Positions 8,671 to 42,500 of a stretch of DNA of 44,336 nucleotides are shown one piece after another (the stretch's first letter is position 1; each line of letters opens with the position of its first letter). The notes under the pieces are model-generated. The model was not told the origin of the DNA. It worked only from the letters and a program-made list of their open reading frames with translations, and searched no databases. Made by a program: the position numbers and the translations under genes. The stretch is from Gracilibacillus sp. YIM 98692. GTDB taxonomy: Bacteria; Bacillota; Bacilli; Bacillales; Amphibacillaceae. The stretch is taken from assembly GCF_010993965.1 (NCBI RefSeq), contig NZ_WIXM01000032.1, positions 1 to 44,336 on the forward strand, written 5' to 3'.

Positions 8671-8888
8671 CGATAAGTGTCATTTTCATTGTATGTCTTA
8701 TTGATTTGGTATTTATTCAGCTGTTAAGTACCAAGTTTATGAGATCTAGTCTTGATTTTGGCACTTATCACCGTTATAAGTGTCATTTTTGGTCGTGTGG
8801 TTATTCATTTTGGTACTTAATGGTGGTTTAAGTACTATTTTGACAAATTACTTTTTTCTTTATGGTACTTAACCTTGTGATATGATCA
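8671..8888 (+). repeat. repeat A, copy 1
   Basis: One of seven near-identical elements of about 200 bp, all in the same orientation. In order: R0 GATAAGTGTCATTTT; hairpin 1 GGTATTTA/TAAGTACC; hairpin 2 GGCACTTAT/ATAAGTGTC; hairpin 3 GGTACTTAA/TTAAGTACT; L4 GGTACTTAACC, which can pair with R0. This copy has TTTTTTCTTTATGGTACTT instead of TTTTTTATTTTGGTACTT near its end. That is the same junction left at the right side of repeat B inside copy 6. It is followed by TTGTGATATGATCAAA and then cassette E. No reading frame is conserved within it. Confidence 0.9.
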
Positions 8889-8890
8889 AA

Positions 8891-9248
8891 CGATCCCACT
8901 AATCCCGAATTATTGAAAGTTAATCGTTAGATAATCATAAAAATATATGAAGAACTTTTTTATTAATGAAGGGGTGGGATCGTGGAATTTGAGGTTGGAC
9001 GAATTATTGTGATAATTATAGGTATTTCATTATTAATATTGGGAATTAAGCACAAAAAGGATCATCACGAAGAACCATACAAACCTATTAAGATGGGTAA
9101 AGCAAAGTATGATGAAGATGCGGAAAAATCGGTTGTCGGTTTATCACTTTTTGGATTACTTAGTATGTTTCCGTGATGGTTTATTAAAATCGTTAACATA
9201 TGTTTAGGTTTATTGTTTTTATATTTCGGTTTTTTTGGTAACCAATAA
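8891..9248 (+). pseudogene. cassette E copy 2: 88-aa membrane protein gene with a nonsense codon
   Basis: Leader inverted repeat CGATCCCAC (8891-8899) / GTGGGATCG (8974-8982), then the gene from GTG 8982. The frame is collinear with the intact copy at 42635-42901, but a TGG (Trp) codon is TGA at 9174-9176, so only 64 residues (MEFEVGRIIVIIIGISLLIL...GLLSMFP) are made and the second membrane helix is lost. After the stop the frame continues cleanly to TAA 9248, so the mutation looks recent. A truncated one-helix product remains possible. Confidence 0.8.
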
Positions 9249-9443
9249 TCAAACATATGTGTTTTATCACTAAATGGCGGGATTGTTGAACAAAAAGTGT
9301 GAAACTATTTATCAAAACGATGCGTCTTTATTATTAAGGAGACAATAAAAAGTGAAGTACTTCTTCTTGTGCTAAAGGGTGGAGTTAGTGGAAGAGTTCA
9401 GATTTTAACATGAAACTAAAATACGACATAAGGAGGAGATTTG

Positions 9444-9680
9444 ATGATATCTTGGGTTTCTTGGTTTGCTGTGGGACTTATTGTAGCTGTATTAATTTAT
9501 GCGATTTTTAGCATATATTTAAAAAAACAGATAGGCTTATATATTGCAGCAGCTTTCCATATTGTTTTAGGTATTTTGTCACTTCCTTCAATTGGATTAT
9601 ATGTTTTAGGATTAGCCATTCTTGAAATAATCGCAGGAATTGCAATGACTGTAAAATATCGTCGTACACGGACTATTTAA
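9444..9680 (+). CDS. small hydrophobic membrane protein
   Basis: A 78-aa protein with three hydrophobic segments (about residues 4-24, 30-50, 52-70) and a basic tail (KYRRTRTI), consistent with an inner-membrane protein with a cytoplasmic C-terminus. AGGAGGAG lies seven bases upstream of ATG 9444; the TTG directly before it (9441) is too close to the SD. No family recognised. The region 9249-9443 has a C-like block (ACTAAATGGCGGGATTGTTG) but no other gene. Confidence 0.75.
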   Translation: MISWVSWFAVGLIVAVLIYAIFSIYLKKQIGLYIAAAFHIVLGILSLPSIGLYVLGLAILEIIAGIAMTVKYRRTRTI

Positions 9681-9829
9681 CGGAAATAAATGTGGCTATT
9701 GGCAGTAGAGTTTAAGAATCCTTTTGATTGAGATGTGAGTTCTGCCTAATATGAATAACTTATCCCAAAGTATTCATTTTTTAATTAGGTAAAGTAATAA
9801 GAACATTTTCAGAAGTTGGAGTTGATTGA

Positions 9830-10300
9830 ATGGGAATATGGATCAGGCGTCTTATAATAATAGGTTGTGTAATTGCACTTATACCGAATATTATTTCGTT
9901 TTTTTCAGGGCTAACTAATGAGTTACCAGAGAATATTAAAGGTAAAGTGAATAACGAGGATGCAGTACTTATTGATTTAGATAGAAAGGTAAACTTTGAA
10001 AATGATGAGATTTTGTTTAAATATCTTGTATTAGCACCAGATGAAACCTCATTAATTTTTGAGGTACACTCCAATGAAAACGGATGGTCATTTCCAGGAT
10101 CTGCACTTGAATTAAAGGATAAACAAGGAAATACTTATCGAATAACAAGTGGCTCTTCTTCAGGACATACATGGGGGCAGTACACGATTAATAATTATGA
10201 ACCTTTGGAAGCAGGTGTAGAAACAATAGTAGTAGATTTTGAATGGTTTGATCGGATGTTTCAAACGGAGTTTTCATTAGATCAGGGGGGAATGCAATGA
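9830..10300 (+). CDS. membrane-anchored protein, DUF5643-like outer domain
   Basis: A 156-aa protein with one N-terminal membrane anchor (residues 8-27, LIIIGCVIALIPNIISFFSG) and an extracytoplasmic beta-rich domain. The segment FPGSALELKDKQGNTYRITS with GVETIVVDFEWFDRMFQTEF resembles the DUF5643-type domain found after anti-sigma-like proteins; this match is tentative. The SD is weak (GGAGTTGATTG). It overlaps the next gene by ATGA at 10297-10300, so the two are translationally coupled and probably work together. Confidence 0.72.
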   Translation: MGIWIRRLIIIGCVIALIPNIISFFSGLTNELPENIKGKVNNEDAVLIDLDRKVNFENDEILFKYLVLAPDETSLIFEVHSNENGWSFPGSALELKDKQGNTYRITSGSSSGHTWGQYTINNYEPLEAGVETIVVDFEWFDRMFQTEFSLDQGGMQ

Positions 10301-10893
10301 ATAGAGAAAAAATAAAAGTGATAATAGAATGGACCATTGCATTTCTATTAATCTTTATTGTTATTAAAGACTCCCCTTATTTTAGTTATTACGAACTTTC
10401 ACCAGAAGCAGCATTTGAAAGATCTGAACGAACCTATCATTATGGTCCATCAGAAGTATTAGAAAAGGTAGATTTAGATGATGTTCAAATTTTCCTATCA
10501 AAATATAAGAACTGGTTTTCAGCTACTTTAGTTAACAAACATGCTGGCATTTTTTGGGGACCAGGTAGCGGTGTTGGTGGAATGGAAATTAAAGACGACC
10601 AAGATATTACACATTCTTTGGGTGGTACCACTATTAATGAGGATTACATGTTGAAGCGGTATTATGGTATTGTTACTAACCCAGAAATAAATAAGGTGGA
10701 ACTAGATGTTGCGGAAGGGTATGGTTGGGATGAACAAGTCCCTGCAGAAGATATTGTTACGTTAGCTTATCAGTTAAAAGATCATCGCATGTTTTTATTC
10801 CATTGGAATGAAGCGGAAGATAACTATCTCAGTATAGCTTTACGAGGGTTGAATAGCGATGGTGAAGTTATTTATGAAGAAGACCTAAGGTGA
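10297..10893 (+). CDS. membrane-anchored protein coupled to the preceding gene
   Basis: A 198-aa protein with one N-terminal membrane helix (residues 10-24) and an extracytoplasmic domain of about 170 residues. It carries no lipobox and no motif I can name; there is a Gly-rich GIFWGPGSGVGGMEIKDDQD. AGATCAGGGGGGAATGCA gives a strong SD before ATG 10297, inside the end of the upstream gene. The four-base overlap implies coupled expression. Function unknown. Confidence 0.75.
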   Translation: MNREKIKVIIEWTIAFLLIFIVIKDSPYFSYYELSPEAAFERSERTYHYGPSEVLEKVDLDDVQIFLSKYKNWFSATLVNKHAGIFWGPGSGVGGMEIKDDQDITHSLGGTTINEDYMLKRYYGIVTNPEINKVELDVAEGYGWDEQVPAEDIVTLAYQLKDHRMFLFHWNEAEDNYLSIALRGLNSDGEVIYEEDLR

Positions 10894-10957
10894 GCCTATT
10901 AGAAATTACTTTACTTAATCATGATACAACATAAGTAAATATTTCTGGAGGTGACTC

Positions 10958-11101
10958 ATGATGAAGTGGGAAGATGTATGCCAAGCTTTCCCAGAACAAT
11001 GGGTATTGATAGAAACTGTTCGAGCACATACAAATGAGAAAAGTGAGCGTATTTTAGATGATATTGCTCCCTTGAAAAAGTTTTCTAATTCTCCAGATTA
11101 A
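10958..11101 (+). pseudogene. truncated conserved hypothetical gene (MKWEDV... family)
   Basis: A 47-aa frame with CTGGAGGTG seven bases before the start: MMKWEDVCQAFPEQWVLIET, VRAHTNEKSERILDDIAPLK, KFSNSPD. It looks like the N-terminal half of a conserved small Bacillales protein that normally continues to about 85-90 residues. The frame ends where repeat D begins (CAGGGAATTTAAGTCCCTTT), so the element probably replaced the 3' half. Family recognition is from memory of the pattern. Confidence 0.6.
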
Positions 11102-11190
11102 CAGGGAATTTAAGTCCCTTTCTTCAAACACGAAGGATAAGTACTCTTCTCTATTGAATAAATGTAATTATGCTAAATGGCAGGTTAATA
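11102..11190 (+). repeat. repeat D, copy 1 (starts with an nhaC-like fragment)
   Basis: Reads CAGGGAATTTAAGTCCCTTT, CTTCAAACACGAAGGATAAG, TACTCTTCTCTATTGAATAA, ATGTAATTATGCTAAATGGC. The first 20 bases match part of the antiporter gene at about 30850-30870. The same composite occurs at 39080 and, shortened, at 37246. Confidence 0.7.
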
Positions 11191-11251
11191 CAAAAAGATA
11201 GAAACTTATCTCCAAATATAAGCGTCATATACAGAGGAGGGGTGGTATACT

Positions 11252-11593
11252 TTGAACAAATTGGTATTTATTTCACTGCTAATTCTTTTATCAATAATTT
11301 TAACTGGCTGTAATTTATTTGATTCTAAACATAATTTACCGATTGAGATGGTAGCTTTCAATAGCCTTACGAATGAAGAAAAAGATTTAATTCCAGTAAG
11401 TCCTAAAGATTCAATCGTAAAAAAGGTAGCTGTTAACGATGATATAGAATCATTAATTGATAATGACTATGACAAAGATCATGTTTACTCTGTTACATTT
11501 AATAATACCGAGACTGATTCTTCTGGGAAACTTGTAGTTTTTGTTAATTTGGATAAAAAAATAGTTGTTGGGAAAGGAATTACCAGCAAATAA
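11252..11593 (+). CDS. small lipoprotein, unknown function
   Basis: A 113-aa predicted lipoprotein: signal LNKLVFISLLILLSIILTGC, lipobox L-T-G-C, then a small acidic domain ending KKIVVGKGITSK. The TTG start is supported by GAGGAGGGGTGG upstream and by the signal peptide beginning there. Family not recognised. It follows repeat D and precedes another lipoprotein gene. Confidence 0.8.
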   Translation: MNKLVFISLLILLSIILTGCNLFDSKHNLPIEMVAFNSLTNEEKDLIPVSPKDSIVKKVAVNDDIESLIDNDYDKDHVYSVTFNNTETDSSGKLVVFVNLDKKIVVGKGITSK

Positions 11594-11691
11594 ATTGTGT
11601 TCTTCTTTTTCTAAAGCAGCAATTGTTTCATTGATTTCTCAATATGTCTTCCAAGGTATTGTGAATTTTACGAACCAAAGGGGAATGACAG

Positions 11692-12474
11692 ATGAAAAAA
11701 TTATTAGTGTTAATCCTGTTATTTTTTCTAATGTTAATCTTTAGTGCCTGCGAGGCGAATCAGCTAGTAGCACCTGATCAAGAGACGCTCACCCATGATG
11801 TTGAACAGAACGGGCTTGCACTACAAGCCACGATAAAAGTAGGCAAAGACATTAATGTAGACGCATCGATTACGAATACAAGTAGTGAGACAATTATTTA
11901 TAATGGTCGTTGCGGCATTCCTTTTAGGATATCTGTTCAAAAGGAAGATGCTCATGCGAACCTCGTCCCACGTAATCGCAAGGGAGGGGGATGCACTGAT
12001 GTATTCGATCCTGATGATTTAAGGGAAATGAAACCGAATGAAACATTTGATAAAAAAATAACCTTTAAACGTGAGGTCAGTTTAACGAATAAACGTACTG
12101 TACCTGCACTAAACGGCGAGTATAAAGTGTTCTTTTCGTTCGAAATGCATGAGAAGGAGAGATTCTTGTCTTCATTACCTATTAAACTTACGAATAATAA
12201 AGAAACTGAAATAATGACTGTAGATCAAGCAAAAAAGATGGCCAAAACGAATAAAGAAGTGAAGCGATGGTTTGACGAGCATGAAAAACAAGACATGCCG
12301 ATTGAATCAGAGGATGCCATTTTAAGCGAGGGGATGTGGACAGTTGCTTTCCATGCTATTTATCAAGATGGTGCTAACCGAATTGTCATCAACATGAATG
12401 CCGAAACCGGGGAAGTTAAGGCGATTCATTATGAAGAAGTAGGTAAAGATGTATTGGGATTTTTGAAAGATTAA
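11692..12474 (+). CDS. lipoprotein with BsuPI-like and PepSY-like regions
   Basis: A 260-aa predicted lipoprotein: signal MKKLLVLILLFFLMLIFSAC with a lipobox F-S-A-C. Residues about 35-165 (GLALQATIKVGKDINVDASI, TNTSSETIIYNGRCGIPFRI ... GEYKVFFSFEMHEKE) look like the BsuPI-type immunoglobulin-like domain named after an intracellular proteinase inhibitor. Residues about 175-255 (TVDQAKKMAKTNKEVKRWFD ... WTVAFHAIYQ...VINMNAETGEVKAI) resemble a PepSY module. AAAGGGG precedes the ATG. It is probably a cell-surface protein; the partner is unknown. Confidence 0.75.
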   Translation: MKKLLVLILLFFLMLIFSACEANQLVAPDQETLTHDVEQNGLALQATIKVGKDINVDASITNTSSETIIYNGRCGIPFRISVQKEDAHANLVPRNRKGGGCTDVFDPDDLREMKPNETFDKKITFKREVSLTNKRTVPALNGEYKVFFSFEMHEKERFLSSLPIKLTNNKETEIMTVDQAKKMAKTNKEVKRWFDEHEKQDMPIESEDAILSEGMWTVAFHAIYQDGANRIVINMNAETGEVKAIHYEEVGKDVLGFLKD

Positions 12475-12830
12475 ACTTGAATCACAATAACTGAAACGTT
12501 AGGACCTTACAAAACCACTTCCTAAAACTACCTCAATAATGGGTTCTATGATTGATGAGATATAATATTACTGTACAATGGTAGAATGGGTGCATTGTTG
12601 AATAAGAATGCCATGGTCGCTACATTATATATATGAATAAAATGTAGCAACCATTTTTCATAACTAGCACTGAAAATGAAAGCTGCAGTTGGTTTAAAAG
12701 TAGCGGCCCGCAGTAAAATCTGACAACAATTTAAGTTTGCATTAAATTTAATCATAGTAGAATCATAAAGGAAAATCATCTAAAATTCCTTTATAGCCGA
12801 GGAGTTTAGTGGTTTGCTTTTAATAGGTTC
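12475..12830. other. gene-poor gap
   Basis: No convincing gene. It contains a C-like block (GGGTGCATTGTTGAATAAGA) with a CTACATT...AATGTAG hairpin at about 12620-12648. The minus-strand frame through 12546-12779 has no SD and no recognisable protein. Confidence 0.6.
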
Positions 12831-12983
12831 TCACATGTCATGTGATGCACCATGTTTTTGTCGGGAATGGTTTTTATTTTTTACTTTATGTGATCCTGCT
12901 AATGGTTCACCATAGGGCTGTTGTACGCTTTTGGGTAAATCAGGTTGTTCCTGCTGTTTCGGTCCTTTACGATTTTTGGTCAT
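12831..12983 (-). CDS. sspP: small acid-soluble spore protein SspP
   Basis: A 50-aa minus-strand gene. It reads [20 protein letters not shown], then [20 protein letters not shown] and [10 protein letters not shown]. The C-terminal pattern GSxKVKNxNHxRxKHxxSHDM is diagnostic of the minor spore protein SspP (CotL). GGAGG lies nine bases upstream of the ATG. It follows a zinc-ribbon gene on the same strand and is expected to be made in the forespore; I did not find a clear sigma-G promoter. Confidence 0.9.
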
Positions 12984-13007
12984 ATTTATTCATCCTCCAT
13001 GATTTAT

Positions 13008-13250
13008 TTATGGTCTTTGAGCATACTTAATAAAGGTGTTTTCGTCTTCAATTAAGCCACATACACCGCATTGTATTCTCCTGCTAGGGCCGTTGTAGGC
13101 GACATGAAAAGCTTCTAACGGTTCCTGCTCGTAATTATTGATCACTTCCCCAGTAGCTGTGTTTAATTTTACTGGTTTGGCAACTTGTTCAATTACATTA
13201 AATCGTGAACGGTTTGTTTTACATTTAGGGCACCGGTAAGGCTGATTCAA
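13008..13250 (-). CDS. small zinc-ribbon protein, conserved in Bacillaceae
   Basis: An 80-aa protein with two Cys pairs, CPKC near the N-terminus and CGVC about 50 residues later ([20 protein letters not shown]), which form a zinc ribbon. The frame extends to ATG 13265, but that has no SD. GGAGGTG lies eight bases before TTG 13250, giving [20 protein letters not shown]. It is 24 bases upstream of sspP and may share its transcript. Conserved across bacilli as far as I recall, but its function is not known to me. Confidence 0.75.
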
Positions 13251-13513
13251 GAAAAACACCTCCATGGTTACTTTGTTATTTGTATGAGTATTGCTACAAA
13301 GTTTGAACCATACTTACCTTTTATTTTTTCTGATTTCTGCTAAATTATACGGAGGCTTTAACCTTTTTGATAAAAGGTATAAAGATTAACAAGCCACCAT
13401 TTTAGTTTAGTGCTGTGGTTTTGTCTACTTTATAGTAATACTCAGTCTTTTTAACTTGTTTTTCTCAGATTCATACGCATATTTCTCACCTGAATTCCCC
13501 GTTTTCATATTCT

Positions 13514-13580
13514 ATTGTGTGAATTATTACACTTAAAGTAAAGGGTGCGAATATTTAACAAGTAGATCATCAATCGTGGA
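13514..13580 (+). repeat. intergenic repeat C, copy 7 (joined to repeat A)
   Basis: Reads ATTGTGTGAATTATTACACT, TAAAGTAAAGGGTGCGAATA, TTTAACAAGTAGATCATCAA, TCGTGGACGAT, then repeat A. The first 25 bases are almost identical to the copy at 38637. The flank 13251-13513 holds no gene. Confidence 0.7.
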
Positions 13581-13798
13581 CGATAAGTGTTATTTTCATT
13601 GTATTTCTTATTGATTTGGTATTTATTCAGCTGTTAAGTACCAAGTTTATGAGATCTAGTCTTGATTTTGGCAGTTATCACCGTTATAAGTGTCATTTTT
13701 GGTCATGTCGTTATTAATTTTGGTACTTAATGGTGGTTTAAGTACTGTTTTGACAAAGTACTTTTTTATTTTGGTACTTAACCTGGTGATATGATCAA
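13581..13798 (+). repeat. repeat A, copy 2
   Basis: Full-length copy with the same hairpin order as the others. Hairpin 2 has a stem mismatch (GGCAGTTAT instead of GGCACTTAT). It ends GGTACTTAACCTGGTGATAT followed by GATCAAC. It lies between two minus-strand genes, so it is antisense to local transcription, yet keeps the common orientation. Confidence 0.9.
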
Positions 13799-13864
13799 CA
13801 CTGTTCCATGATAATAAATGGACATCTAGTACTCACTCCTTTTTTGATATTTTAAATAAACGTA

Positions 13865-13930
13865 AAAAACGCCCACCCAAATATTCAAAGTTCTGTCTTA
13901 GAAATTTTGAAAGCTTGAGTGAGCGTTTTT
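13865..13930 (-). terminator. terminator-like hairpin, 3' of the gene at 14009
   Basis: The arms AAAAACGCCCACCC (13865-) and GAGTGAGCGTTTTT (13917-) pair with two mismatches. An inner TTCAAA/TTTTGA pair and a T-run follow on the minus strand. It probably ends the minus-strand gene at 14009. Confidence 0.6.
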
Positions 13931-14008
13931 AGAAGTTCTCTTGTTTTAAAATTAAATGAACATTATAACAAGTTGCAGTATAGATGGCTTAGAGTTTGGT
14001 TATTGATA

Positions 14009-14365
14009 TTAGATAACGTATTTTTCCTCTCTTATTTGTTTTAGGATTTTTGTTTTGATTGGATCTAAAAGAAGATAAGAGTAAAAATTTAACACACTTT
14101 CATATTGCTTTTTCTCGCTATTCCATAGGGAAAAATGGTGAAATTTCCAAGAATCTCTGTTTGTTTGCAGCTCTTTCTTTAAAGTGATTTTGCATTTGTA
14201 CCACCAGGGAAAAGAATAAAACAAACCTGTAACCTCCATGAATCTACAAGTGGGATGATACTCTTTCCTATTAATAATATAAATGCAATCCTTCTTTATA
14301 TACTCTCGGCCTATTTGTATGTCTTTAATGTGTTCTTCATATTTCACTATTATCCCTACTTTCAT
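14009..14365 (-). CDS. hypothetical protein
   Basis: A protein of about 118 aa, basic and aromatic-rich (KVGIIVKYEEHIKDIQIGRE, TGLFYSFPWWYKCKITLKKE), with two Cys and no signal peptide. It matches no family I recognise. ATG 14365 is preferred because AAAGAG lies eight bases upstream; an in-frame TTG at 14398 lacks an SD. A terminator-like hairpin follows. The coding status is plausible rather than certain. Confidence 0.45.
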   Translation of the reverse strand: MKVGIIVKYEEHIKDIQIGREYIKKDCIYIINRKEYHPTCRFMEVTGLFYSFPWWYKCKITLKKELQTNRDSWKFHHFSLWNSEKKQYESVLNFYSYLLLDPIKTKILKQIREEKYVI

Positions 14366-14550
14366 TTTTGTTTCTCTTTTAGTAGGCAGTTTAGGCAAAT
14401 CGGTAAAGAAAAATACATAGTAAATTGGAATGAAATAATATTGTGGAGATGTAGAGGAATGGCATGTCTGGCTTACACCAAGACATCGTTAATCTACTCG
14501 CTTTTTTAAGATATATGTCGGAGAGGGGACACAATCATATACCAAAATGG

Positions 14551-15657
14551 TTATGGGCTTTGTTGTTGTCCCCCTTTTTTATTCTTAAACAATCCGGCAA
14601 CAAGCATTAATACAGGTAAAACCAATCCAAATGTTAAAGAAAAAGGAATCCATGCACTAGTTAAAAACTGCTTTTGCTCCACTACACTTGGCCTCATAAA
14701 AACGGCAAATACCAGTAACACATACACGAATGGAATCGTCGTTGTTTTATAATCCTTTAATTGTAATAATTGCTTAAATCCTATTATTAACACGTAATAT
14801 CCAATTGTAATTTTGAAAAAAATGGTAAAAAACCAAATGATAGCTACTAAAATCTCTATACGCTCTAAGAAATCAGCAATAGATATTTTTTTACCCAGAA
14901 TATAGGTAGGATATATATTCCGAGTCGTCATATCCACTCCTAGCACCAATAAACACACCAATGTAATCACGACTAGCAGAAGCCCGCCAATAGTGACACC
15001 CACAAGGAATTGTTTTTCAATCCTCTTGTTATTCACATTTTGCATAAATGCTAAGAAAAGTACCATTTCTAAAAAAGGATATCCTAATAATGGTAATGCA
15101 CCTGCAAAAGCACCAGCTACATCGGTTTGAAGAATGGGTTGAATATTCGTAATCTCTGCTTCTGGTGTTACTAAAATAAGTAACAAAAATATAGATAGGA
15201 TAATATACGGGAAAAAGATTTCTGCTGCTCTGGCAATGACTTCAATCCCATACCTTACTCCAAAGAAGCATGTAATTAAAGCTAGAAACATAACCATTTC
15301 TACTGGCGTTTCGATCAAAATTTGGGTCGTAATGAAATCACCCATTACCCGCAAATTACCAATCGTAATATGAAAGGCAAATAACATAAACAAGAAAGAT
15401 AGAAGTTTCCCGATCCACTTCCCAAATAATAGTTCTAGCTGTTGATAAATATTTTTGTCAGGATTTTTCTTGTAAATGGCGTTATAAACGACAACCATAC
15501 CAATTCCGAATATAGTTGCTAATAAAACGGAAAACCAACCATTCTGTTTTCCATAGGCAGAAACAATGGCTGGCACCGTAATAATTGCTGTTCCTAATAC
15601 GTTCATAATCACGAGAATAGTAAACTGACGACCACTTATTTTCACAAGTTCACTCAA
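14551..15657 (-). CDS. germinant receptor B subunit (GerB/GerKB family, AAP type)
   Basis: A 368-aa integral membrane protein with about ten transmembrane segments. It matches the spore germination permease family, a branch of amino-acid/polyamine transporters, starting with the typical ISGRQFTILVIMNVLGTAII. Germinant receptor B subunits sit in the spore inner membrane and form the germinant-binding site. Length fits the family. It is the last gene of a four-gene minus-strand operon (A, C, D, B). Confidence 0.92.
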   Translation of the reverse strand: MSELVKISGRQFTILVIMNVLGTAIITVPAIVSAYGKQNGWFSVLLATIFGIGMVVVYNAIYKKNPDKNIYQQLELLFGKWIGKLLSFLFMLFAFHITIGNLRVMGDFITTQILIETPVEMVMFLALITCFFGVRYGIEVIARAAEIFFPYIILSIFLLLILVTPEAEITNIQPILQTDVAGAFAGALPLLGYPFLEMVLFLAFMQNVNNKRIEKQFLVGVTIGGLLLVVITLVCLLVLGVDMTTRNIYPTYILGKKISIADFLERIEILVAIIWFFTIFFKITIGYYVLIIGFKQLLQLKDYKTTTIPFVYVLLVFAVFMRPSVVEQKQFLTSAWIPFSLTFGLVLPVLMLVAGLFKNKKGGQQQSP

Positions 15658-15697
15658 AATACTTCCTCCGTTCAGGTAGATGAACTATTTATAAGAA

Positions 15698-15946: not shown

Positions 15947-15948
15947 AG

Positions 15949-17160: not shown

Positions 17161-17178
17161 CCCAAAAACCTCTTTACT

Positions 17179-18896: not shown

Positions 18897-19097
18897 CGAT
18901 AAGTGTCATTTTCATTGTATTTCTTATTGATTTGGTATTTATTCAGCTGTTAAGTACCAAGTTTATTAGATCTAGTCTTGATTTTGGCACTTATCACCGT
19001 TATAAGTGTCATTTTGGGTCGTGTGGCTATTCATTTTGGTACTTATCGGTGGTTTAAGTACTATTTTGACAAAGTACTTTTTTATTTTAGTACTTAT
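18897..19097 (+). repeat. repeat A, copy 3
   Basis: Full-length copy, preceded directly by TTTAAA with no C repeat. It begins ACGATAAGTGTCATTTT and ends TTAGTACTTATTCAGG, a diverged right end. It lies between gerA (leftward) and the 3' end of the choline symporter gene. A TCCCTGTCACTT motif at 18874 can pair with TGACAGGGA at 18808. Confidence 0.9.
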
Positions 19098-19127
19098 TCA
19101 GGATCTCTATAAATGAGATATAGTTTT

Positions 19128-25989: not shown

Positions 25990-26192
25990 CGATAAGTGCT
26001 ATTTTTATTGTATTTCTGATTGATTTGGTATTTATTCAGCTGTTAAGTACCAAGTTTATTAGATCTAGTCTTGATTTTGGCACTTATCACCGTTATAAGT
26101 GCCATTTTTGGTTGTGTGGTTATTCATTTTGGTACTTAATGGTGGTTTAAGTACTATTTTGACAAAGTATTTTTTTATTTTGGTGCTTAACC
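25990..26192 (+). repeat. repeat A, copy 4
   Basis: Full-length copy, preceded by GGATCAAA without a C repeat. Hairpin 2 is fully paired (GGCACTTAT/ATAAGTGCC). It ends GGTGCTTAACC and is followed by CCCCTGTCACTT and then a tnpB remnant. Confidence 0.9.
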
Positions 26193-28577: not shown

Positions 28578-28593
28578 AATGAAATCATTAACC

Positions 28594-28737
28594 TTTCTCT
28601 CTACATTGCTTACGGAGTTAGCTGTCGGATTAGGGATTGAGAGTATCCCTTCTTAAACATACCTAGTATGTTTAAGATTCACCCCAAGATAAACATGGTT
28701 TATCAAAAATGGTTCCCCCGCTCATAACGATTCAGCA
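28594..28737 (-). ncRNA. ydaO/yuaA (c-di-AMP) riboswitch aptamer
   Basis: The minus strand carries the conserved blocks in order: ATGAGCGGGGGAACCA, TTGGGGTGAAT, AAGGGATACTCT, AATCCGACAGCTAACTCCGT, AAGC, closed by AGAGAG. These are hallmarks of the ydaO/yuaA class, which senses c-di-AMP and turns off potassium and osmolyte genes. A terminator follows and then ktrAB. The rest of 28738-29000 has no gene. Confidence 0.95.
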
Positions 28738-29000
28738 AAAAGGTTGTTGTATAAAATTGATAAATATAACATACTCCTTTGATAATCAATAGTCAATATT
28801 ATTTTGACATATTTAACATTTTAATAAGTCAATTTGACACTGTTACAAAACATAGATTCCTATTACAAAGGACTCTTTATAACTGTCAAATGTATTAATA
28901 ATAAACAATAGCATAAGTTTCAATCAGTTAACAGTAATGGAGTGATTGAAAATCGATTAGTCCACTGAAAAGGTAATTTCCGAAACTTTTAAGTAGCCTT

Positions 29001-33450: not shown

Positions 33451-33485
33451 TCCGTAATAATTAGATCTCTTATCATAGTTTCAAA

Positions 33486-33657
33486 ATGGATGTTGGCAAG
33501 CTTACCAAAGGATCTTGTCTTGGTGCATCGGGATAGCCTATGGCGGGTAATCCCCTTTCTCCGCTGTAGAACAGATAATCTTATCATAGACTAACTAATC
33601 AAGAACAGTCGGATTACGATGAAAGAATTGGGCGAGAAAGTCCATTTAACTGGACCA
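33486..33657 (+). pseudogene. remnant of a second mbl-lrp locus
   Basis: The left part (GGATGTTGGCAAGCTTACCA, AAGGATCTTGTCTTGGTGCA) matches the 5' part of the MBL gene at about 6607-6665. The right part (AAGAACAGTCGGATTACGAT, GAAAGAATTGGGCGAGAAAG, TCCATTTAACTGGACCA) matches the lrp gene at about 6958-7012. Order and orientation are the same as the intact locus, but the promoter region between is compressed from about 270 to about 60 bases. Confidence 0.85.
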
Positions 33658-33710
33658 TAATAAATAGTGATGGGATGGATAATAATTACATACACTTGAA
33701 TCCATAATTA

Positions 33711-33911: not shown

Positions 33912-33939
33912 AATTACAAAAGAAAAGGAAGTGATTGGT

Positions 33940-34245: not shown

Positions 34246-34257
34246 GGAGGGTGTGTG

Positions 34258-36642: not shown

Positions 36643-36670
36643 AAATATAAATTTAAAGGAGTGTAAAGTC

Positions 36671-36877
36671 ATGGAAAAGACAATAAGCGTTCAAGGCATG
36701 TCATGTGGTCACTGCAAAATGTCAGTGGAAGGTGCATTAAAAGATTTAGATGGCGTTACAGCTGCTGAAGTTAATTTAGACGCGGGTAGTGTGGATGTTA
36801 CCTATGATGACTCAAAAGTTACATTTGATGCTTTGAAAGAAGCTATTGAAGAACAAGGCTATGATGTGGAGGCTTAA
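36671..36877 (+). CDS. copZ: copper chaperone CopZ
   Basis: A 68-aa single heavy-metal-associated domain with the metal site GMSCGHC (Cys12 and Cys15) and the beta-alpha-beta-beta-alpha-beta pattern. It delivers Cu(I) to CopA. AAAGGAG lies upstream of ATG. Third gene of the CsoR-controlled operon. A hairpin without a clear T-run follows at 36898-36938. Confidence 0.95.
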   Translation: MEKTISVQGMSCGHCKMSVEGALKDLDGVTAAEVNLDAGSVDVTYDDSKVTFDALKEAIEEQGYDVEA

Positions 36878-37035
36878 TCATTTTCTAATGGAAATCAACC
36901 CTCGGGAGTGTACCATTCAGGTATACGCTCTCTAGGGTTAGCATTAGTAGGTACTATATTGGCGATTCACTATCTGATTTGTGAAAGAAGGGGCGATTGT
37001 GGAATAAGCTGCAATCGTCTTTTCTGTTAGGCAAA
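36878..37035 (+). repeat. C-like block before repeat A copy 5
   Basis: TTTGTGAAAGAAGGGGCGAT, TGTGGAATAAGCTGCAATCG, TCTTTTCTG, i.e. a variant of repeat C with its CGATTG...CAATCG hairpin and T-run intact. Repeat A starts after GGCAAACGAT, 15 bases later. Confidence 0.55.
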
Positions 37036-37226
37036 CGATAAGTGTCATTTTCATTGTATTTCTTATTGATTTGGTATTTATTCAGCTCTTAAGTACCAAG
37101 TTTATTAGATCTAGTCTTGATTTTGGCACTTATCATCGTTATAAGTGCCATTTTTGGTCGTATGGTGATTCATTTTGGTACTTAATGTTGGATTAAATAC
37201 TAGTTTGACAAAGTATTTTTTTATTT
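37036..37226 (+). repeat. repeat A, copy 5 (3'-truncated by repeat B)
   Basis: Same hairpin series but with more substitutions (TCAGCTCTTAAG; TTGGATTAAATACTAG). It stops at TTTTTTATTT, where the left end of repeat B (CCGTATAGGAAAGCATAAA) begins; the final GGTACTTAACC is missing. Confidence 0.85.
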
Positions 37227-37320
37227 CCGTATAGGAAAGCATAAATTGTCCCTTTCTTCAACACGAAGAATAAGCACCCTTCTTTATTGAATAAATGTAA
37301 TTATGCTAAATGGCAGGAAT
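37227..37320 (+). repeat. repeat B left end (copy 2, truncated) joined to repeat D copy 2
   Basis: Only the first 24 bases of repeat B (CCGTATAGGAAAGCATAAAT, TGTC) remain. They run into TCCCTTTCTTCAACACGAAG, ATTGAATAAATGTAATTATG and CTAAATGGCAGG of repeat D, so a deletion or recombination joined them. No gene in 37320-37447. Confidence 0.75.
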
Positions 37321-37447
37321 TATAATGACATGTTGCATTTTGGTGGAAAAATTTACACTGAAAAATCCGCTGAAAAAGGTGATGTTGTGTTAAAGTGGCA
37401 GGTTAGTGGAATAAGTATTTAAATATTTTGTAGGGAGAGATATAATT

Positions 37448-37891
37448 TTGAAAAAAAAGATTACAACATTGTTAGGACTAATGATTCTTTTGTTGGTTGG
37501 ATGCTCAAATGAAGAGATTCCTAACCATCTAGTGTTTGAAGGAAAAAGTGAAAATTTTAAAGTTCATTTTGAAGTAAGTCAATCCCCTAACGAGAATAAA
37601 AAAGGAAAGTATCATTATTCAGAAAGACCAATGATTGATTATATAGGAGATGATTACGAACTAGGTACTCATTTTAAATGGAAAATCACTGGTTCTGATA
37701 TTATACAATCACGAGCTTCGGGTACTAGTAAAAAAAGAAAATTTGGTGTAATCCCACCCCAAAATTGGTATGAATCCACTGCATTTGATTCCTATCTAAA
37801 AGAAGATGCTTCACTTACTTTTAAAATGGATTGGGGACAAAAAAGTGAGTCTATCCCTTTAAAACTTACAAAAGTTTCATACACCGAATAA
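37448..37891 (+). CDS. small lipoprotein, unknown function
   Basis: A 147-aa predicted lipoprotein: signal MKKKITTLLGLMILLLVGC with lipobox L-V-G-C. The mature part is one beta-rich domain (HLVFEGKSENFKVHFEVSQS ... LTFKMDWGQKSESIPLKLTK), reminiscent of small Ig-like lipoproteins of bacilli; not assigned. The start is TTG with GGGAGAG upstream. It follows the A/B/D repeat cluster. Confidence 0.8.
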   Translation: MKKKITTLLGLMILLLVGCSNEEIPNHLVFEGKSENFKVHFEVSQSPNENKKGKYHYSERPMIDYIGDDYELGTHFKWKITGSDIIQSRASGTSKKRKFGVIPPQNWYESTAFDSYLKEDASLTFKMDWGQKSESIPLKLTKVSYTE

Positions 37892-38082
37892 ATTTCTCGA
37901 TACAAAGAGATAAAACTAACAATAAATAGAAACATCTACCGAAATATAAGATAAATAAAGTGAAATTAAAGTATATGGGTCTCCTAATGGAGGCTTATCT
38001 GGAACAAGAAACGTAGACCTTATTGCGTTAAAGGGAAGGTTAATTTAAAAACAAAAATTTATTGATAGATTGGAGGAGTAAG

Positions 38083-38619
38083 ATGTCTAAGCGGAAAATA
38101 AGTGTAATTGCTATGATTTCTATAGTGTTAAATATTGCTTTGATTTGGTTTGGATTTTCTTTTTATCAAGAAAATAAGACTATTAAAAAAGGAATTATTA
38201 CTCAATATTCAACACAACAAGAGGAAGCACTGTTTGAATTGGAAAGAGCACTAGAAAATCAAGATGACAAAGAGGAATTTGTCAAAGCATTAACATCGGC
38301 ATATGGAATCATATATCATAATGAAGTCTTAACGAGAACTTATACACCTATTGGTGAGAATGTGGAAATTCCTGAGAATATAAACATAATAAATAGTCCT
38401 TACACATCCAAAGCGATTGGGAATGCACTATTCGAACGAACAATGGATAGGATGGATAATGACGATATGCAAAAATTAGAAGAATATACATCATATGTTG
38501 ATGATGTGGTTAAAACACTTGATTATCGAAATACAATAGAGGAAAAAAGTTTAAGCCAGCAATATAAAGTCTTAAATGAAGTTAGTAATTTAATCGAAGG
38601 TTTTGATTTAGAAGACTAA
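38083..38619 (+). CDS. membrane-anchored protein, unknown function
   Basis: A 178-aa protein with one N-terminal membrane anchor (residues 6-24, SVIAMISIVLNIALIWFGFS) and a helical, acidic extracytoplasmic domain rich in Glu/Asp. ATG 38083 is preferred because GGAGGAG lies five bases upstream; the frame is open from 38062. No family recognised. No gene partner on either side. Confidence 0.78.
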   Translation: MSKRKISVIAMISIVLNIALIWFGFSFYQENKTIKKGIITQYSTQQEEALFELERALENQDDKEEFVKALTSAYGIIYHNEVLTRTYTPIGENVEIPENINIINSPYTSKAIGNALFERTMDRMDNDDMQKLEEYTSYVDDVVKTLDYRNTIEEKSLSQQYKVLNEVSNLIEGFDLED

Positions 38620-38636
38620 AAATGTAACTTCATCTT

Positions 38637-38704
38637 ATTGTGTGAATTATTACACTTAAACAAACGAAGGGCGAATATTTAACAAGTAGATCGTCAATCG
38701 AGGA
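38637..38704 (+). repeat. intergenic repeat C, copy 8 (joined to repeat A)
   Basis: ATTGTGTGAATTATTACACT, TAAACAAACGAAGGGCGAAT, ATTTAACAAGTAGATCGTCA, ATCGAGGACGAT, then repeat A. Confidence 0.7.
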
Positions 38705-39044
38705 CGATAAGTGTCATTTTCATTGTATTTCTTATTGATTTGGTTTTTATTCAGCTGTTAAGTACCAAGTTTATTAGATCTAGTCTTGATTTTGGCACTT
38801 ATCACCGTTATAAGTGCCATTTTTGGTCGTGTGGTTATTGTTTTTGGTACTTAATGGTGGTTTAAGTACTATTTTGACAAATTACTTTTTTATTTCCGTA
38901 TAGGAAGTATAAATTGTCAGCAAGGAAGCAATTTCGACGTAGTGGACAATTTTAGGAATATAGATAAGGGCAACTACGTCTCTGACTTCACCAAAGGCTC
39001 GTCAATCGACGAGTTTTCTTTATGGTGCTTAACCTTGTGATATG
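38705..39044 (+). repeat. repeat A, copy 6, interrupted by repeat B
   Basis: The A part runs 38705-38895 (ending TTTTTTATTT). Repeat B occupies about 38896-39020: CCGTATAGGAAGTATAAATT, GTCAGCAAGGAAGC, CGACGTAGTGGACAATTTTA, ACTACGTCTCTGAC, CTCGTCAATCGACGAG. The A right end then resumes as TGGTGCTTAACCTTGTGATA. Within B, GACGTAGT pairs with ACTACGTC. Confidence 0.85.
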
Positions 39045-39050
39045 ATCAAA

Positions 39051-39165
39051 GCTTGGTCAGTCAATTGAAAACACATTAGCAGGGAATTTAAGTCCCTTTC
39101 TTCAAACATGAAGGATAAGTACCCTTCTTTATTGAATAAATATAATTATGCTAAAGGGCAGTTAT
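39051..39165 (+). repeat. nhaC-gene fragment and repeat D, copy 3
   Basis: 39051-39102 matches 30821-30872 inside the NhaC-type antiporter gene with about three differences in 52 bases (GCTTGGTCAG, CAATTGAAAACACATTAGCA, GGGAATTTAAGTCC). It continues into repeat D (CTTCAAACATGAAGGATAAG, TTATGCTAAAGGGCAG). Likely gene debris carried with the repeat. No other gene in 38620-39229. Confidence 0.8.
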
Positions 39166-39267
39166 GTTGAAGAAGAAGTATCCTTTTGGTTAAAGTATAA
39201 GAAATGACAATGAAAAGGTGGTATAAAAAGTGATAAAAAGAGAACTTCGGAAAACAGCTGATGGTGG

Positions 39268-39693
39268 ATGGCTTCGTTTACAAACAGTCACGAATATTTG
39301 TCAGAGCAAGTGTGGGAAGTATTAACAAATGAAGATTATGTTAATAAGTGGCATCCAGAACTTCGAATGCACCAACTACGTGACGGTGGTAACATAATTT
39401 TTGATTTCGGGAATGGTGAATTTCATAAGTTACCTATTCGAGAGTTTAAAGAAGGTAAGATTTATGGATTTGACTGGTACGGAAGTTACATACGATTTGA
39501 AGTGGAAGAGGATGGACAGTTGCTGATGACGTTTAAAGTCAACGAAGTAAATGAGCAATCACTTCGGGACCTTACAGGATGGACGATGATTAGTGAAGCA
39601 ATTGATGCCACATTACGTGGAGAAAGTTTCACGTTTGATAAGGAACGGGCTGGAAAGATACGTCAAGAATATGAGCGTGAGTTGGAAGTATAG
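39268..39693 (+). CDS. SRPBCC/START-domain protein, probable N-terminal frameshift
   Basis: A 141-aa SRPBCC protein: ASFTNSHEYLSEQVWEVLTN, NKWHPELRMHQLRDGGNIIF, RDLTGWTMISEAIDATLRGE. Upstream, AAAAGGTGG precedes GTG 39230, whose frame reads MIKRELRKTADGG and then continues out of frame. Relatives begin with a similar RxxxxTxDGWxASF, so a one-base loss at about 39263-39265 probably separates the true start from the body. As it stands, translation would have to begin at ATG 39268 without an SD. Confidence 0.75.
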   Translation: MASFTNSHEYLSEQVWEVLTNEDYVNKWHPELRMHQLRDGGNIIFDFGNGEFHKLPIREFKEGKIYGFDWYGSYIRFEVEEDGQLLMTFKVNEVNEQSLRDLTGWTMISEAIDATLRGESFTFDKERAGKIRQEYERELEV

Positions 39694-39801
39694 TTACTTA
39701 AAAAGAAATAGTTATTCAACTATCGCGTGCTTTTCTTCAATAAGATTTGAATCATTATCTTCCACAATCGAGGCACGATTGTGGAACTAGATATATCAAA
39801 A

Positions 39802-39836
39802 AAAGCAGATTTCTTAAAATTTAGGAAACCTGCTTT
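39802..39836. terminator. bidirectional terminator-like hairpin
   Basis: AAAGCAG and CTGCTTT with an inner imperfect stem (TTTCTTA/TAGGAAA). An A-run at the left makes it terminator-like on the minus strand. No minus-strand gene ends here; on the + strand it follows the SRPBCC gene by 110 bases. Confidence 0.5.
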
Positions 39837-39971
39837 GTAAAAATGAATCCGAGTACTGGAATTAATGGGATCACCTATTAAATGGGTATATTTCAAGAAA
39901 ATACTAAAAATGCAATAAAGTGCAAAGAGCGTAAAAAAAACTTGTTGTATCAAGGGTTTAACCCTCTGCAA

Positions 39972-40376
39972 AAAATGATGATTGCAATAAAAATGAAAGC
40001 GGTTTAATCTAAGTGTAAGACATGAAGCAGTTACCCAAGATTAATTGATAAAGTGAATGGATCAAGTAACTGAAAATGTGAGAAACAGATCTGAGTTGGC
40101 CCGTTTAAATGGTAAATCAATTAAAGGAATAGGCACTGCCAAGGAAGCAATTTCGACGTAGTGGACAATTTTAGCGAATATAGATAAGTGCAACTATGTC
40201 TCTGACTTCGCCAAAGGCTCGTCAATCGACGAGTTTTCTTTATATGCTTTTAAAGGAGGTGACTTTAAGTAACCTGTTGTGCCTATACTCCTTGTTCAGG
40301 GAAATAAGGAATCTATCAAACATTTAAAGCAAGGGCATTTAACTCGGAAAAATCATTAACGAGAGGAGACTTTTTT
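39972..40376 (+). repeat. gap with repeat B, copy 4, cutting a possible gene remnant
   Basis: Repeat B occupies about 40139-40248 (AAGGAAGCAATTTCGACGTA, ACTATGTCTCTGACTTCGCC, CTCGTCAATCGACGAG, TTTTCTTTATA) but lacks its left inverted repeat. It joins a frame that begins at ATG 40057 (MDQVTENVRNRSELARLNGK, SIKGIGTA) and is stopped by TAG inside the repeat, so it may have truncated a gene. The remainder up to 40376 holds the SD and leader of the pectate lyase gene. Confidence 0.65.
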
Positions 40377-41906
40377 GTGAAAAAAATTGGAAGTTTGATT
40401 ATGACTATTTGTATGCTTGCAACCGTGCTTACGACAAATACTGTTAGTGCGAATGCAGAGGGTTATACGGAGACGGGATCGAATTCGGCAATTTACTACA
40501 TATCTCCAACTGGTAGTGATAGCAATCCAGGAACTAAAAGTGAGCCATTTAAAAGTTTGATGAAGGCGCAAGCCGAAGCTTCCTCTGGGGATACCGTATA
40601 TATTCGTGGCGGAGTTTATGATGAGTTTGAGTTTGATCAAGATACAGATAATCTGCACGAGTCTGTTTATCATTTTGTGCATGATATTTATAAGAGCGGG
40701 ATTACCTATCAGGCTTATCCTGGAGACGAAAGACCTGTTTTTGATTTCAGTAATGTACCAACTGATCAACGTGTAGCTGCTTTTTACATAGGAAGAGAAG
40801 TTACTGATATCAATTTCATCGGATTTGATGTGACTGGAGTTAAAGTAGGTGACCAAAAGCAGTCCGAAGCTTTTAGAATTGGTGGTGAAGCGAACTTCGA
40901 GAATATGGCTGCTTATAATAATGAAGCAAATGGTTTTTACTATTTTGCCAATGGGACAGGAGTTGTTCTAAATACAGATGCTTATAACAACATTGGACCA
41001 ACTCCTAGATCAGCTGGAAATATAGATGGTTTTGGTGCTCATGGAGAAGCAGTTTGGTTCATTAACAGCCGTGCATGGAATAACAGTGATGATGGATTTG
41101 ACAGTATCAATTCAAATGGGCCAGTAACTCATATCAATAGCTGGGCTTTTAATCATAATGGTAATCAAGAGCGTATAGGCGACAAAAATGGGTTTAAAGT
41201 CGGCGGATATGCTTATATAACAGAGGGACTTCCAGATCCATTGCCAGTTCATACCGTTATAAATAATTTATCTGTTAATAACGGAGGTAATAACTTTTAT
41301 GCGAATCATCAGCCAGGGCAATCAGCTTATTGGATTAATAACACGGCTTCCAATCCTGGCTATGGTGCTAACTTCAATATGCTAGAGCGTGTCAGTCCAA
41401 CTAGTACAGAAGACATCCCTGGTTACCGAGAAGTTTTACACAATAACATTGCTTATGAGGGTCCACTAACATCAAATTTAGACAATGATAAGACTCCGCA
41501 AGAAAATATAACGAATAATTCTTGGACCATAGATGGTGGTCTTGATGTCACTGCTGATGATTTTGAAAGTATGGATATGGAACAATTAACTGCACCTAGA
41601 AAATCAGACGGCAGTTTACCTGATGTGACATTTATGAAACCTGTACCTACTAGTCCGCTTTACCAAAACGGTTTAGGCTACCTTGCTGACAAAAATGATC
41701 CTTTTGTAACCTTACAAAAACTAGTGTCAGTATACGCCCAATCCGGAAATATAGATAATCATGGAATTGAAAGAAGTCTCCAGATGAAACTAAAGAACCA
41801 TAATCTGTCTGGTTTTATTAATGAGTTAGAGGCTCAATCAGGAAAGCATATAGATGAGGAAACAGCACATAGTCTGACTCTAGTAGCGAATGCTTTGATA
41901 AAATAA
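40377..41906 (+). CDS. secreted PL9-like pectate lyase with FIMAH-like C-terminal domain
   Basis: A 509-aa exported protein. Signal peptide about 1-27 (SLIMTICMLATVLTTNTVSA). Then ISPTGSDSNPGTKSEPFKSL (about 45-65), typical of right-handed beta-helix (DUF1565/PL9) lyases, and many Asn-rich beta-helix turns (GVVLNTDAYNNIG, FINSRAWNNSDDGFDSINSN, VINNLSVNNGGNNF). Residues about 445-509 (LVSVYAQSGNIDNHGIERSL ... HIDEETAHSLTLVANALIK) look like a FIMAH domain, a small helical module of surface proteins. Probable substrate: polygalacturonate. GTG start with GAGAGGAG upstream; a terminator follows. Confidence 0.85.
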   Translation: MKKIGSLIMTICMLATVLTTNTVSANAEGYTETGSNSAIYYISPTGSDSNPGTKSEPFKSLMKAQAEASSGDTVYIRGGVYDEFEFDQDTDNLHESVYHFVHDIYKSGITYQAYPGDERPVFDFSNVPTDQRVAAFYIGREVTDINFIGFDVTGVKVGDQKQSEAFRIGGEANFENMAAYNNEANGFYYFANGTGVVLNTDAYNNIGPTPRSAGNIDGFGAHGEAVWFINSRAWNNSDDGFDSINSNGPVTHINSWAFNHNGNQERIGDKNGFKVGGYAYITEGLPDPLPVHTVINNLSVNNGGNNFYANHQPGQSAYWINNTASNPGYGANFNMLERVSPTSTEDIPGYREVLHNNIAYEGPLTSNLDNDKTPQENITNNSWTIDGGLDVTADDFESMDMEQLTAPRKSDGSLPDVTFMKPVPTSPLYQNGLGYLADKNDPFVTLQKLVSVYAQSGNIDNHGIERSLQMKLKNHNLSGFINELEAQSGKHIDEETAHSLTLVANALIK

Positions 41907-41924
41907 GGAATTATGATCACTGAA

Positions 41925-41959
41925 AGAGGCACCTCATATTGGGTGTCTCTCTCTTTTTT
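41925..41959 (+). terminator. terminator of the pectate lyase gene
   Basis: AGAGGCACC and GGTGTCTCT (one G-T pair) form a 9-bp stem with an eight-base loop, followed by CTCTTTTTTT. Confidence 0.9.
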
Positions 41960-42229
41960 TAATAAAAGTGTATTTTTCTAGTGAATGCAATTGCAAGTTT
42001 TATGCTTTATTTAGTTTTAGGAAAATTCAAGTTTTTTTGTTAATGTACGTATTTTTGTTAATAAAAATGTTCTTAGCACTATAATGGGCTTCTATTAGCT
42101 GGTTCGTATTATAAGGTTAGAAAGCACAAAGAAATCCTTTGAAAGTATAAAAAGTCAGCATTATTAAGCTATCCATAGGGTGGCATTTTTAATTTTGTTG
42201 TATATTAAATTAAAGAGAGAAACTCTCAT

Positions 42230-42289
42230 GTGAAGCGTTTCACTTAAACAATCGGGCTAGTATTTAACAAGTAGATCGTCAATCGAGGA
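42230..42289 (+). repeat. intergenic repeat C, copy 9 (joined to repeat A)
   Basis: TGTGAAGCGTTTCACTTAAA, CAATCGGGCTAGTATTTAAC, AAGTAGATCGTCAATCGAGG, ACGAT, then repeat A. The rest of 41960-42229 has no gene. Confidence 0.7.
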
Positions 42290-42500
42290 CGATAAGTGTT
42301 ATTTTCATTGTAATTCTTATTGATTTGGTATTTATTCAGCTGTTAAGTACCAAGTTTATTAGATCTAGTCTTGATTTTGGCACTTATGACCGTTATAAGT
42401 GCCATTTTTGGTCGTGTGGTTATTAATTTTGGTACTTAATGGTGGTTTAAGTACTATTTTGACAAAGTACTTTTTTATTTTGGTACTTAACCTTGTGATA
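42290..42500 (+). repeat. repeat A, copy 7
   Basis: Full-length copy with fully paired hairpins 1 (one G-T) and 2 (GGCACTTAT/ATAAGTGCC). It ends GGTACTTAACCTTGTGATAT and is followed, 40 bases later, by cassette E copy 3, as at copy 1. Confidence 0.9.

What the first reader, a model, noticed from the sequence alone, without database searches (positions are those of the whole stretch)
8671..42500. Repeat A: seven copies of a 200-bp element built from successive hairpins with one shared stem motif
Copies start at 8671, 13581, 18897, 25990, 37036, 38705 and 42290. Each reads R0 (ATAAGTGTCA), hairpin 1 (GGTATTTA/TAAGTACC), hairpin 2 (GGCACTTAT/ATAAGTGCC), hairpin 3 (GGTACTTAA/TTAAGTACT) and L4 (TGGTACTTAACC). 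R0 and L4 can pair over nine positions with two G-U pairs, so the whole could close into a cloverleaf with three arms. Between arms, a C-G pair in hairpin 2 replaces the T-A pair of hairpins 1 and 3, i.e. paired substitutions that preserve the stem. No reading frame is conserved. Alternative pairing (R0 with the left arm of hairpin 2) is also possible, as in switch-like RNAs. I know no described element with this design.
Basis: partly seen in the sequence, partly recalled or inferred. Interest (0 to 1): 0.78.

Follow-up and report, generated by a model that had tools for sequence, protein, structure and literature searches.

The report
Replication-oriented palindromic DNA repeat arrays
The seven 200-bp repeats belong to a kind of chromosomal DNA repeat found in many Bacillus-like bacteria: rows of 27-bp palindromes about 52 bp apart that, in the genomes checked, nearly always face one way relative to DNA replication, which hints at an unknown DNA-binding or DNA-moving protein.

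Summary
In detail: seven copies at the stated places, all on one strand, about a dozen more elsewhere in this Gracilibacillus genome. The cloverleaf-RNA reading does not. Each copy is four units of a 27-bp interrupted palindrome (GGTACTTAA–N7–TTAAGTACC plus an outer T/A pair) repeated every 51–52 bp; the closing stem shows almost no covariation. A model of this layout hits 90 of 397 sampled Bacillales genomes (36 of 135 genera). Stems differ by paired changes, but the period stays at 50–52 bp. In one genome 21 of 23 arrays share identical consensus stems while spacers are 65% alike; other genomes carry several stem types. In ten (near-)complete genomes, 77 of 80 array loci point their pyrimidine-rich strand against fork movement. 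A terminator-like hairpin precedes 34 of 35 testable arrays. Stems show little G·U preference. Y1/RAYT transposase is missing from four of six array-bearing Gracilibacillus genomes. I read these as double-stranded-DNA binding arrays for an unidentified protein; a non-Y1 mobile element is the main rival. The window's own subfamily has the opposite polarity. My searches found no description.

The parts
8671..8874 (+). Repeat A copy 1 (four units, a-b-c-d)
13581..13783 (+). Repeat A copy 2
18897..19099 (+). Repeat A copy 3 (last motif TAGTACTTATTC)
25990..26192 (+). Repeat A copy 4
37036..37226 (+). Repeat A copy 5, last F motif lost at CCGTATAGG
38705..38895 (+). Repeat A copy 6, last F motif interrupted by another repeat
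39014..39048 (+). detached end of copy 6 (query 218-251 of 251)
42290..42492 (+). Repeat A copy 7

Best explanation
Each copy is a short, partly degenerate array of phased protein-binding sites that acts as double-stranded DNA. SHOWN: the unit is a 27-bp interrupted palindrome (10-bp arms, 7-bp centre) plus a ~25-bp pyrimidine-rich spacer. Palindrome centres sit 51-52 bp apart, about five helical turns. Arms covary between genera. In some genomes (G273, G459) the arms are nearly the same in all arrays while spacers drift; in others (G208, G270, G393) two or more arm types occur. In the complete genomes examined, arrays lie beside genes co-directional with replication, past a terminator-like hairpin where this could be tested, and face one way relative to the fork in nearly every case. 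INFERRED: sequence-specific DNA-binding proteins (one or a few per genome, not identified here) bind the palindromes on one face of the helix, and an array works as an oriented structural or topological site on the chromosome, in the way tandem BIMEs are thought to work for gyrase (recalled). In Gracilibacillus the array became a four-unit (a-b-c-d) element, and the window's subfamily then spread, partly together with shared flanking modules.
For: Covariation of FR stems across genera: 88.2% of cells paired against 34.8-42.5% when slid, 18 of 20 pairs with double changes, score 0.517 against 0.231 in shuffles. In Gracilibacillus, FR stems plus closing stem exceed all 500 shuffles for percentage paired, doubly changed cells and score; RF pairing does not (392, 177 and 111 of 500 reach it). 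Period 52 in 54 of 54 TRF arrays from 60 loci (filter 49-55); 50-52 in other loci. In 21 of 23 G273 arrays consensus stems are identical, spacers 65%. Polarity 77 of 80 loci; all 16 convergent gaps follow the fork. Unpaired part 80% pyrimidine against 53% in flanks. Terminator-like hairpin before 34 of 35 arrays tested. Little wobble preference. No shared neighbour gene. One locus has its array directly beside the same gene in all six array-bearing Gracilibacillus species.
Against: No binding protein was identified. Several stem types within one genome (G208, G270, G393) do not fit a single protein with one site. Arrays are patchy: 90 of 397 Bacillales genomes and 8 of 17 in the genus, two of those by one weak match each. 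The window subfamily faces the opposite way (17 of 18 copies, read). Loci were found with a model built at 52-bp spacing, which favours that period. In one search two of five measures do not exceed shuffles (pairs with double changes, 198 of 500; pair types, 400 of 500), and the c/d stem has no double change. A mobile element with its own recombinase could explain arms and polarity equally well. A4 and the window subfamily do show an excess of G.T over A.C (14 to 4; 33 to 1).
Confidence: 0.42

Rival explanations
1. Mobile or selfish DNA element: the palindrome is the recognition site of a recombinase or transposase (not Y1/RAYT) that copies or moves 52-bp units; insertion at single-stranded DNA of the fork sets the polarity, and unequal recombination changes copy number.
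For: Geometry (10-bp arms, 7-bp asymmetric centre, 27 bp in all) resembles tyrosine-recombinase core sites (recalled). Dispersed copies in one genome, patchy distribution, several stem types in one genome, unit gain/loss at one site (L005 3 units, L006 2), six G273 arrays with near-identical spacers, array-bordered rearrangement in G000 C1. Fork polarity.
Against: No family occurs more than three times among 108 flanking ORFs. The one presence/absence pair examined gave no clean empty site and no target duplication. None found in phages, plasmids or viral contigs with the queries used. One locus is shared by six species.
Confidence: 0.32
2. Structured RNA (cloverleaf or tandem hairpins, possibly a switch).
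For: Folding z-scores -6.9 (+) and -4.1 (-) for the 42290 copy and -9.8 for a G273 array; stem covariation; G.T-only deviations in the window subfamily.
Against: Closing helix hardly covaries; little wobble preference in 393 units; terminator-like hairpins precede arrays; no Rfam match; strict period in unpaired spacers is unexpected for RNA.
Confidence: 0.1
3. REP/BIME-type element mobilised by a RAYT (Y1) transposase acting on lagging-strand hairpins.
For: Extragenic palindromes of REP size in tandem arrays with strand polarity. PF01797 is present in the nine array-bearing genomes of other genera tested and in G004 and G008.
Against: PF01797 has no match in array-bearing G000, G002, G014 and G016, while 7 of 8 array-free Gracilibacillus genomes tested have it. 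No GTAG/CGTC tag beside the stem in the unit consensuses (read by eye).
Confidence: 0.06
4. Neutral satellite DNA that expands by slippage at palindromes, with polarity set by mutational strand bias.
For: Copy number varies (2.2 to 38.6 units); a palindrome can promote slippage.
Against: Consensus stems identical while spacers are 65% alike in 21 of 23 G273 arrays; 0 of 495 flank windows are as pyrimidine-rich as the median array; the window subfamily has reversed polarity.
Confidence: 0.1

Closest known systems
REP / BIME elements (BIME-2 tandem arrays)
   Same: Extragenic palindromes of 20-40 bp, dispersed and in tandem, often past gene ends
   Different: No Y1/RAYT in four of six Gracilibacillus carriers tested, no GTAG/CGTC tag seen, ~52-bp period, fork-locked polarity
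BOX elements of Streptococcus pneumoniae (recalled)
   Same: Modular element with a variable number of internal units
   Different: No distinct end modules seen; the same kind of unit throughout; found across an order
bcr1 repeats of the Bacillus cereus group
   Same: About 150-bp dispersed repeat in Bacillaceae (size in a table), said to have mobile-element characteristics (title in a reference list)
CRISPR arrays
   Same: Partly palindromic ~27-bp repeats and ~25-bp spacers at a fixed period
   Different: Spacers repeat within an array (TRF match 74-98%); arrays stand next to arbitrary genes

Membership tests
REP/BIME with RAYT | 20-40-bp extragenic palindrome in many copies | tested here: met
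   27-bp palindrome, 23 array loci in G273 alone
REP/BIME with RAYT | Y1-type RAYT transposase in the genome | tested here: not met
   0 PF01797 matches in array-bearing G000, G002, G014, G016; present in 11 other array-bearing genomes tested
REP/BIME with RAYT | GTAG or CGTC tetranucleotide at one end of the palindrome | tested here: not met
   read by eye from unit consensuses; flanks are TTT and CTT in G273
MITE | terminal inverted repeats with target-site duplication | tested here: inconclusive
   many arrays start with R and end with F; no duplication seen at ends read by eye; no clean empty site in the one pair examined
CRISPR | unique spacers within an array | tested here: not met
   spacers repeat within arrays
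CRISPR | adjacent cas genes | tested here: inconclusive
   no cas family among the 25 most frequent of 155 Pfam families in 108 flanking ORFs; the rest were not listed
Rfam RNA families | match above gathering score | tested here: not met
   only 5S rRNA, Bacillaceae-1 and c-di-AMP riboswitch elsewhere in the window
structured RNA | discrete transcript | not testable with these tools
   no RNA-seq available
bcr1 | sequence similarity to bcr1 | not tested
   no bcr1 sequence was fetched

The most novel reading that the evidence does not exclude
An order-wide class of oriented chromosomal DNA arrays: unidentified Bacillales proteins bind 27-bp palindromes on one helical face every five turns and read (or set) chromosome polarity relative to replication, with recognition sequences that shift between lineages, and in some genomes between arrays, by paired changes in both arms.
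Probability: 0.27. Interest if true: 0.88.

Novelty: new variant of a known kind. Interest (0 to 1): 0.73.

Why it matters
Extragenic palindromic repeats are best known from Gram-negatives, where a transposase family accounts for many of them (recalled). Here a comparable layout is found in 36 of 135 Bacillales genera sampled, without that transposase in several carriers, with a period of about 52 bp and an orientation that in one genome is seen to flip at the replication origin. Kept stems, drifting spacers and paired stem changes between genera suggest that something recognises these sites. Finding it would give either a new chromosome-organising system or a new kind of mobile DNA. The question is directly testable by pull-down and deletion.

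Tried and rejected
RAYT/Y1 hypothesis: tested, not met in four of six array-bearing Gracilibacillus genomes. RF (inside-out) hairpin as the unit: fits many array ends but shows no covariation beyond shuffles in Gracilibacillus, though it equals FR where arrays are homogeneous. Polarity as a by-product of background skew: not supported. Shared neighbouring gene: none found. Rfam relatives: none (one sub-threshold hit in L121, outside the array). Phage, plasmid and viral-contig carriers: none found with the queries used. Empty-site search between L061 and L070: no clean site. A helical-phasing claim for half-sites was dropped because it depends on where the half-site centre is set; only the palindrome-to-palindrome distance is claimed. 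Literature: searches (open-access PMC text only) found no description; of PMC2267715, PMC3733652 and PMC4666352 I read only passages; other papers only as listings. On checking this report against the calls I corrected a claim that stems are fixed within every genome; odds for the best explanation and the novel case were lowered a little and those of two rivals raised for that reason and for fuller account.
Full report
WHAT IS IN THE WINDOW. Seven copies of a ~200-bp repeat lie on the + strand at the stated places, none overlapping an ORF of 100 aa or more. The same genome gives 26 blastn hits to a 251-bp query and 19 to the 210-bp core, fragments included. Not every copy has L4: the 18897 copy has TAGTACTTATTC, and the 37036 and 38705 copies are cut at CCGTATAGG. 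The detached end of the 38705 copy is at 39014-39048, so another repeat is nested in it.

ANATOMY. Two motifs, R (TAAGTACC-like) and F (GGTACTTA-like), alternate R-F-R-F-R-F-R-F: 17 bp from F start to R start, 35 from R to F, about 52 per unit. Many arrays begin with R and end with F; in others an end motif is degenerate. The four units a, b, c, d can be followed in order across species (read), and other loci hold two to seven units.

WHO HAS IT. An exact pattern in 84,980 species genomes gave 18 stretches, all Gracilibacillus. A sequence-only profile (R1) hit 8 of 17 genomes of the genus, two of them by a single weak match, and 8 of 159 of the family. One of those 8 is in another genus: an 8.2-copy tandem array with period 52 but different stem letters, GGGCACTCAT..ATGAGTGTCC. 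Blastn with that array matched 12 of 397 Bacillales genomes; of the 18 loci returned, 14 hold a 51- or 52-bp tandem repeat (several loci are the same array) and 4 do not.

ORDER-WIDE CLASS. Aligning two units from these arrays with Gracilibacillus ones gives an almost gap-free alignment of 17 sequences. A structured model from it (R2) hits 90 of 397 Bacillales genomes and 36 of 135 genera at E<=0.001 (rough E-values; only 10 candidates scored per genome); I count 22 family labels in that list. Of the 26 non-Gracilibacillus loci returned, 25 contain a tandem repeat of period 50-52 by TRF (L142 does not). Most of the 90 genomes were not checked further. Limit: the model carries the 52-bp spacing, so very different periods would be missed.

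COVARIATION. On the cross-genus alignment, FR stems pair in 88.2% of cells against 34.8-42.5% when slid; 18 of 20 pairs have changes on both sides; covariation 0.517 against 0.231 in shuffles. RF pairing looks the same there because units within an array are alike. In the Gracilibacillus alignment A2 the two can be told apart. FR stems plus closing stem exceed all 500 shuffles for percentage paired, doubly changed cells and score, but not for the number of pairs with double changes (4 against 3.3; 198 of 500) or pair types (400 of 500). The signal is carried by the b/c stem (T-A to C-G in 9 rows, A-T to T-A in 8); the c/d stem has no double change. The closing stem, tested on R_b..F_d, has 85% paired with two single-row double changes. 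RF pairing reaches no more than shuffles. So the unit is the FR palindrome, and the cloverleaf closure is not supported.

DNA OR RNA. In 393 units of the other genera, stem positions are WC 3721, G.T 70, A.C 53 and other 118 (arrays whose consensus stem has two or more non-WC positions were left out): no marked wobble preference. Against this, A4 shows G.T 14 and A.C 4, and the 13 window-type copies scored show 33 to 1 in FR stems, from few independent changes. Of 48 arrays next to a co-directional gene, 35 gaps of 35-400 bp were tested with a loose scan of my own; 34 hold a terminator-like hairpin with T-run, 8.3 expected in mononucleotide shuffles, and about six of the matches are weak. Single-strand folding is strong for both strands of the 42290 copy and for a G273 array, as any inverted repeat would be. 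No Rfam match.

SELECTION. In G273, 21 of 23 arrays have identical 10-bp consensus arms, while loops are 62% and spacers 65% identical; CTT, a central TTT and terminal TTT in the spacer are nearly invariant. Two arrays were dropped for a 51-letter consensus; one of them (L176) has a deviating left arm, TGTCCTCTAT. The seven G459 arrays also share one arm type, but G208, G270 and G393 each carry at least two, so arms are not fixed in every genome. One locus (L051, L060, L069, L080, L092, L107) has its array directly beside the same gene in six Gracilibacillus species, with differing unit numbers and other spacers in G004. A second (L052, L065, L074, L083, L096) is shared by five; in G000 (L106) the same genes are separated by extra DNA with two arrays 0.7-1 kb away. 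L005 and L006 differ by one whole unit at one site.

POLARITY. With dnaA as origin and the midpoint as terminus, 77 of 80 array loci in 10 (near-)complete genomes of 7 genera have the pyrimidine-rich strand opposite to fork movement. I entered the positions by hand from the printed rows and merged hits within 2.5 kb; unlisted weaker matches are not counted, and G208 is in four contigs. Exceptions: G393 2463142 (0.51 of the circle, near the terminus), G459 4461344, G394 2937687. In G270 the orientation flips between 4444952 (+) and 4654924 (-), on either side of dnaA at 4461502. For G002, weaker arrays would add four concordant (1177010, 1178675, 4269057, 4472631) and two discordant (2281357, 4261805). 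The loci are not phylogenetically independent. Of 54 TRF arrays in 60 loci, 32 lie between two co-directional genes, 16 between convergent genes (all following the fork), 5 between divergent genes (3 with, 2 against the rule) and 1 between two genes against the fork (genes are simple ORF calls, and ORFs overlapping the array were excluded beforehand). The unpaired part of arrays is 80% pyrimidine against 53% in flanks, and 0 of 495 flank windows reach the array median, so background skew does not explain it. The window subfamily is an exception: by GC skew (sign right in 11 of 11 G002 loci) its pyrimidine-rich strand runs with the fork in 17 of 18 copies (read by hand; 17 of 19 with the diverged L028), as does the one G002 copy (2281357). 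Six of six C1-type arrays in the same genome follow the general rule; L087 does not.

MECHANISM. Kept arms, drifting spacers and a period of about five helical turns suggest a trans-acting factor that recognises the palindrome. Y1/RAYT is unlikely: no PF01797 match in array-bearing G000, G002, G014 and G016, while 7 of 8 array-free genomes of the genus tested have it; G004, G008 and all nine array-bearing genomes of other genera tested do have matches, so this rests on Gracilibacillus. Among 108 flanking ORFs no family occurs more than three times. My best reading is a double-stranded DNA-binding array with an oriented chromosomal role; the closest rival is a mobile element with its own recombinase.

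IN PRINT. Searches found no description of a 52-bp array of this kind; subscription journals are mostly missing from that library.

Noticed in passing
window 38896-39013: Another dispersed repeat (GTATAAATTGTCAGC...GAGTTTTCTTTAT) is nested in the last motif of the 38705 copy; a like nesting is seen in L025 and at L021:17745.
   Followed up: partly
window 4303-4602, 8956-9255, 42609-42908: A 300-bp stretch is present three times (65% and 97% identical to the middle one), twice just after a Repeat A copy.
   Followed up: no
window 6923-7013 and 33567-33657: Two 85% identical stretches that look like the start of an Lrp/AsnC-type regulator, the second with an early stop (the name and the stop are my reading).
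   Followed up: no
L107 1976-11567: G000 has ~9.6 kb between stretches that are adjacent in G002; it begins 21 bp before an array, and gene order differs around three arrays, as if arrays were rearrangement breakpoints.
   Followed up: partly
L049 2640-3170: G002 has one more half unit and ~500 bp of extra DNA directly next to an array compared with L062.
   Followed up: no
L090, L092, L093, L094, L098, L101: Several contigs of G004 begin or end in or within a few bases of arrays, so the assembly seems to break there and copy numbers may be underestimated.
   Followed up: no
L148 1-2007: One genome (G459) has an array of 38.6 units with a 104-bp super-period.
   Followed up: no
window 115-298 and 28592-28747: Bacillaceae-1 RNA and 5S rRNA at the contig start, and a c-di-AMP riboswitch on the - strand.
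   Followed up: no
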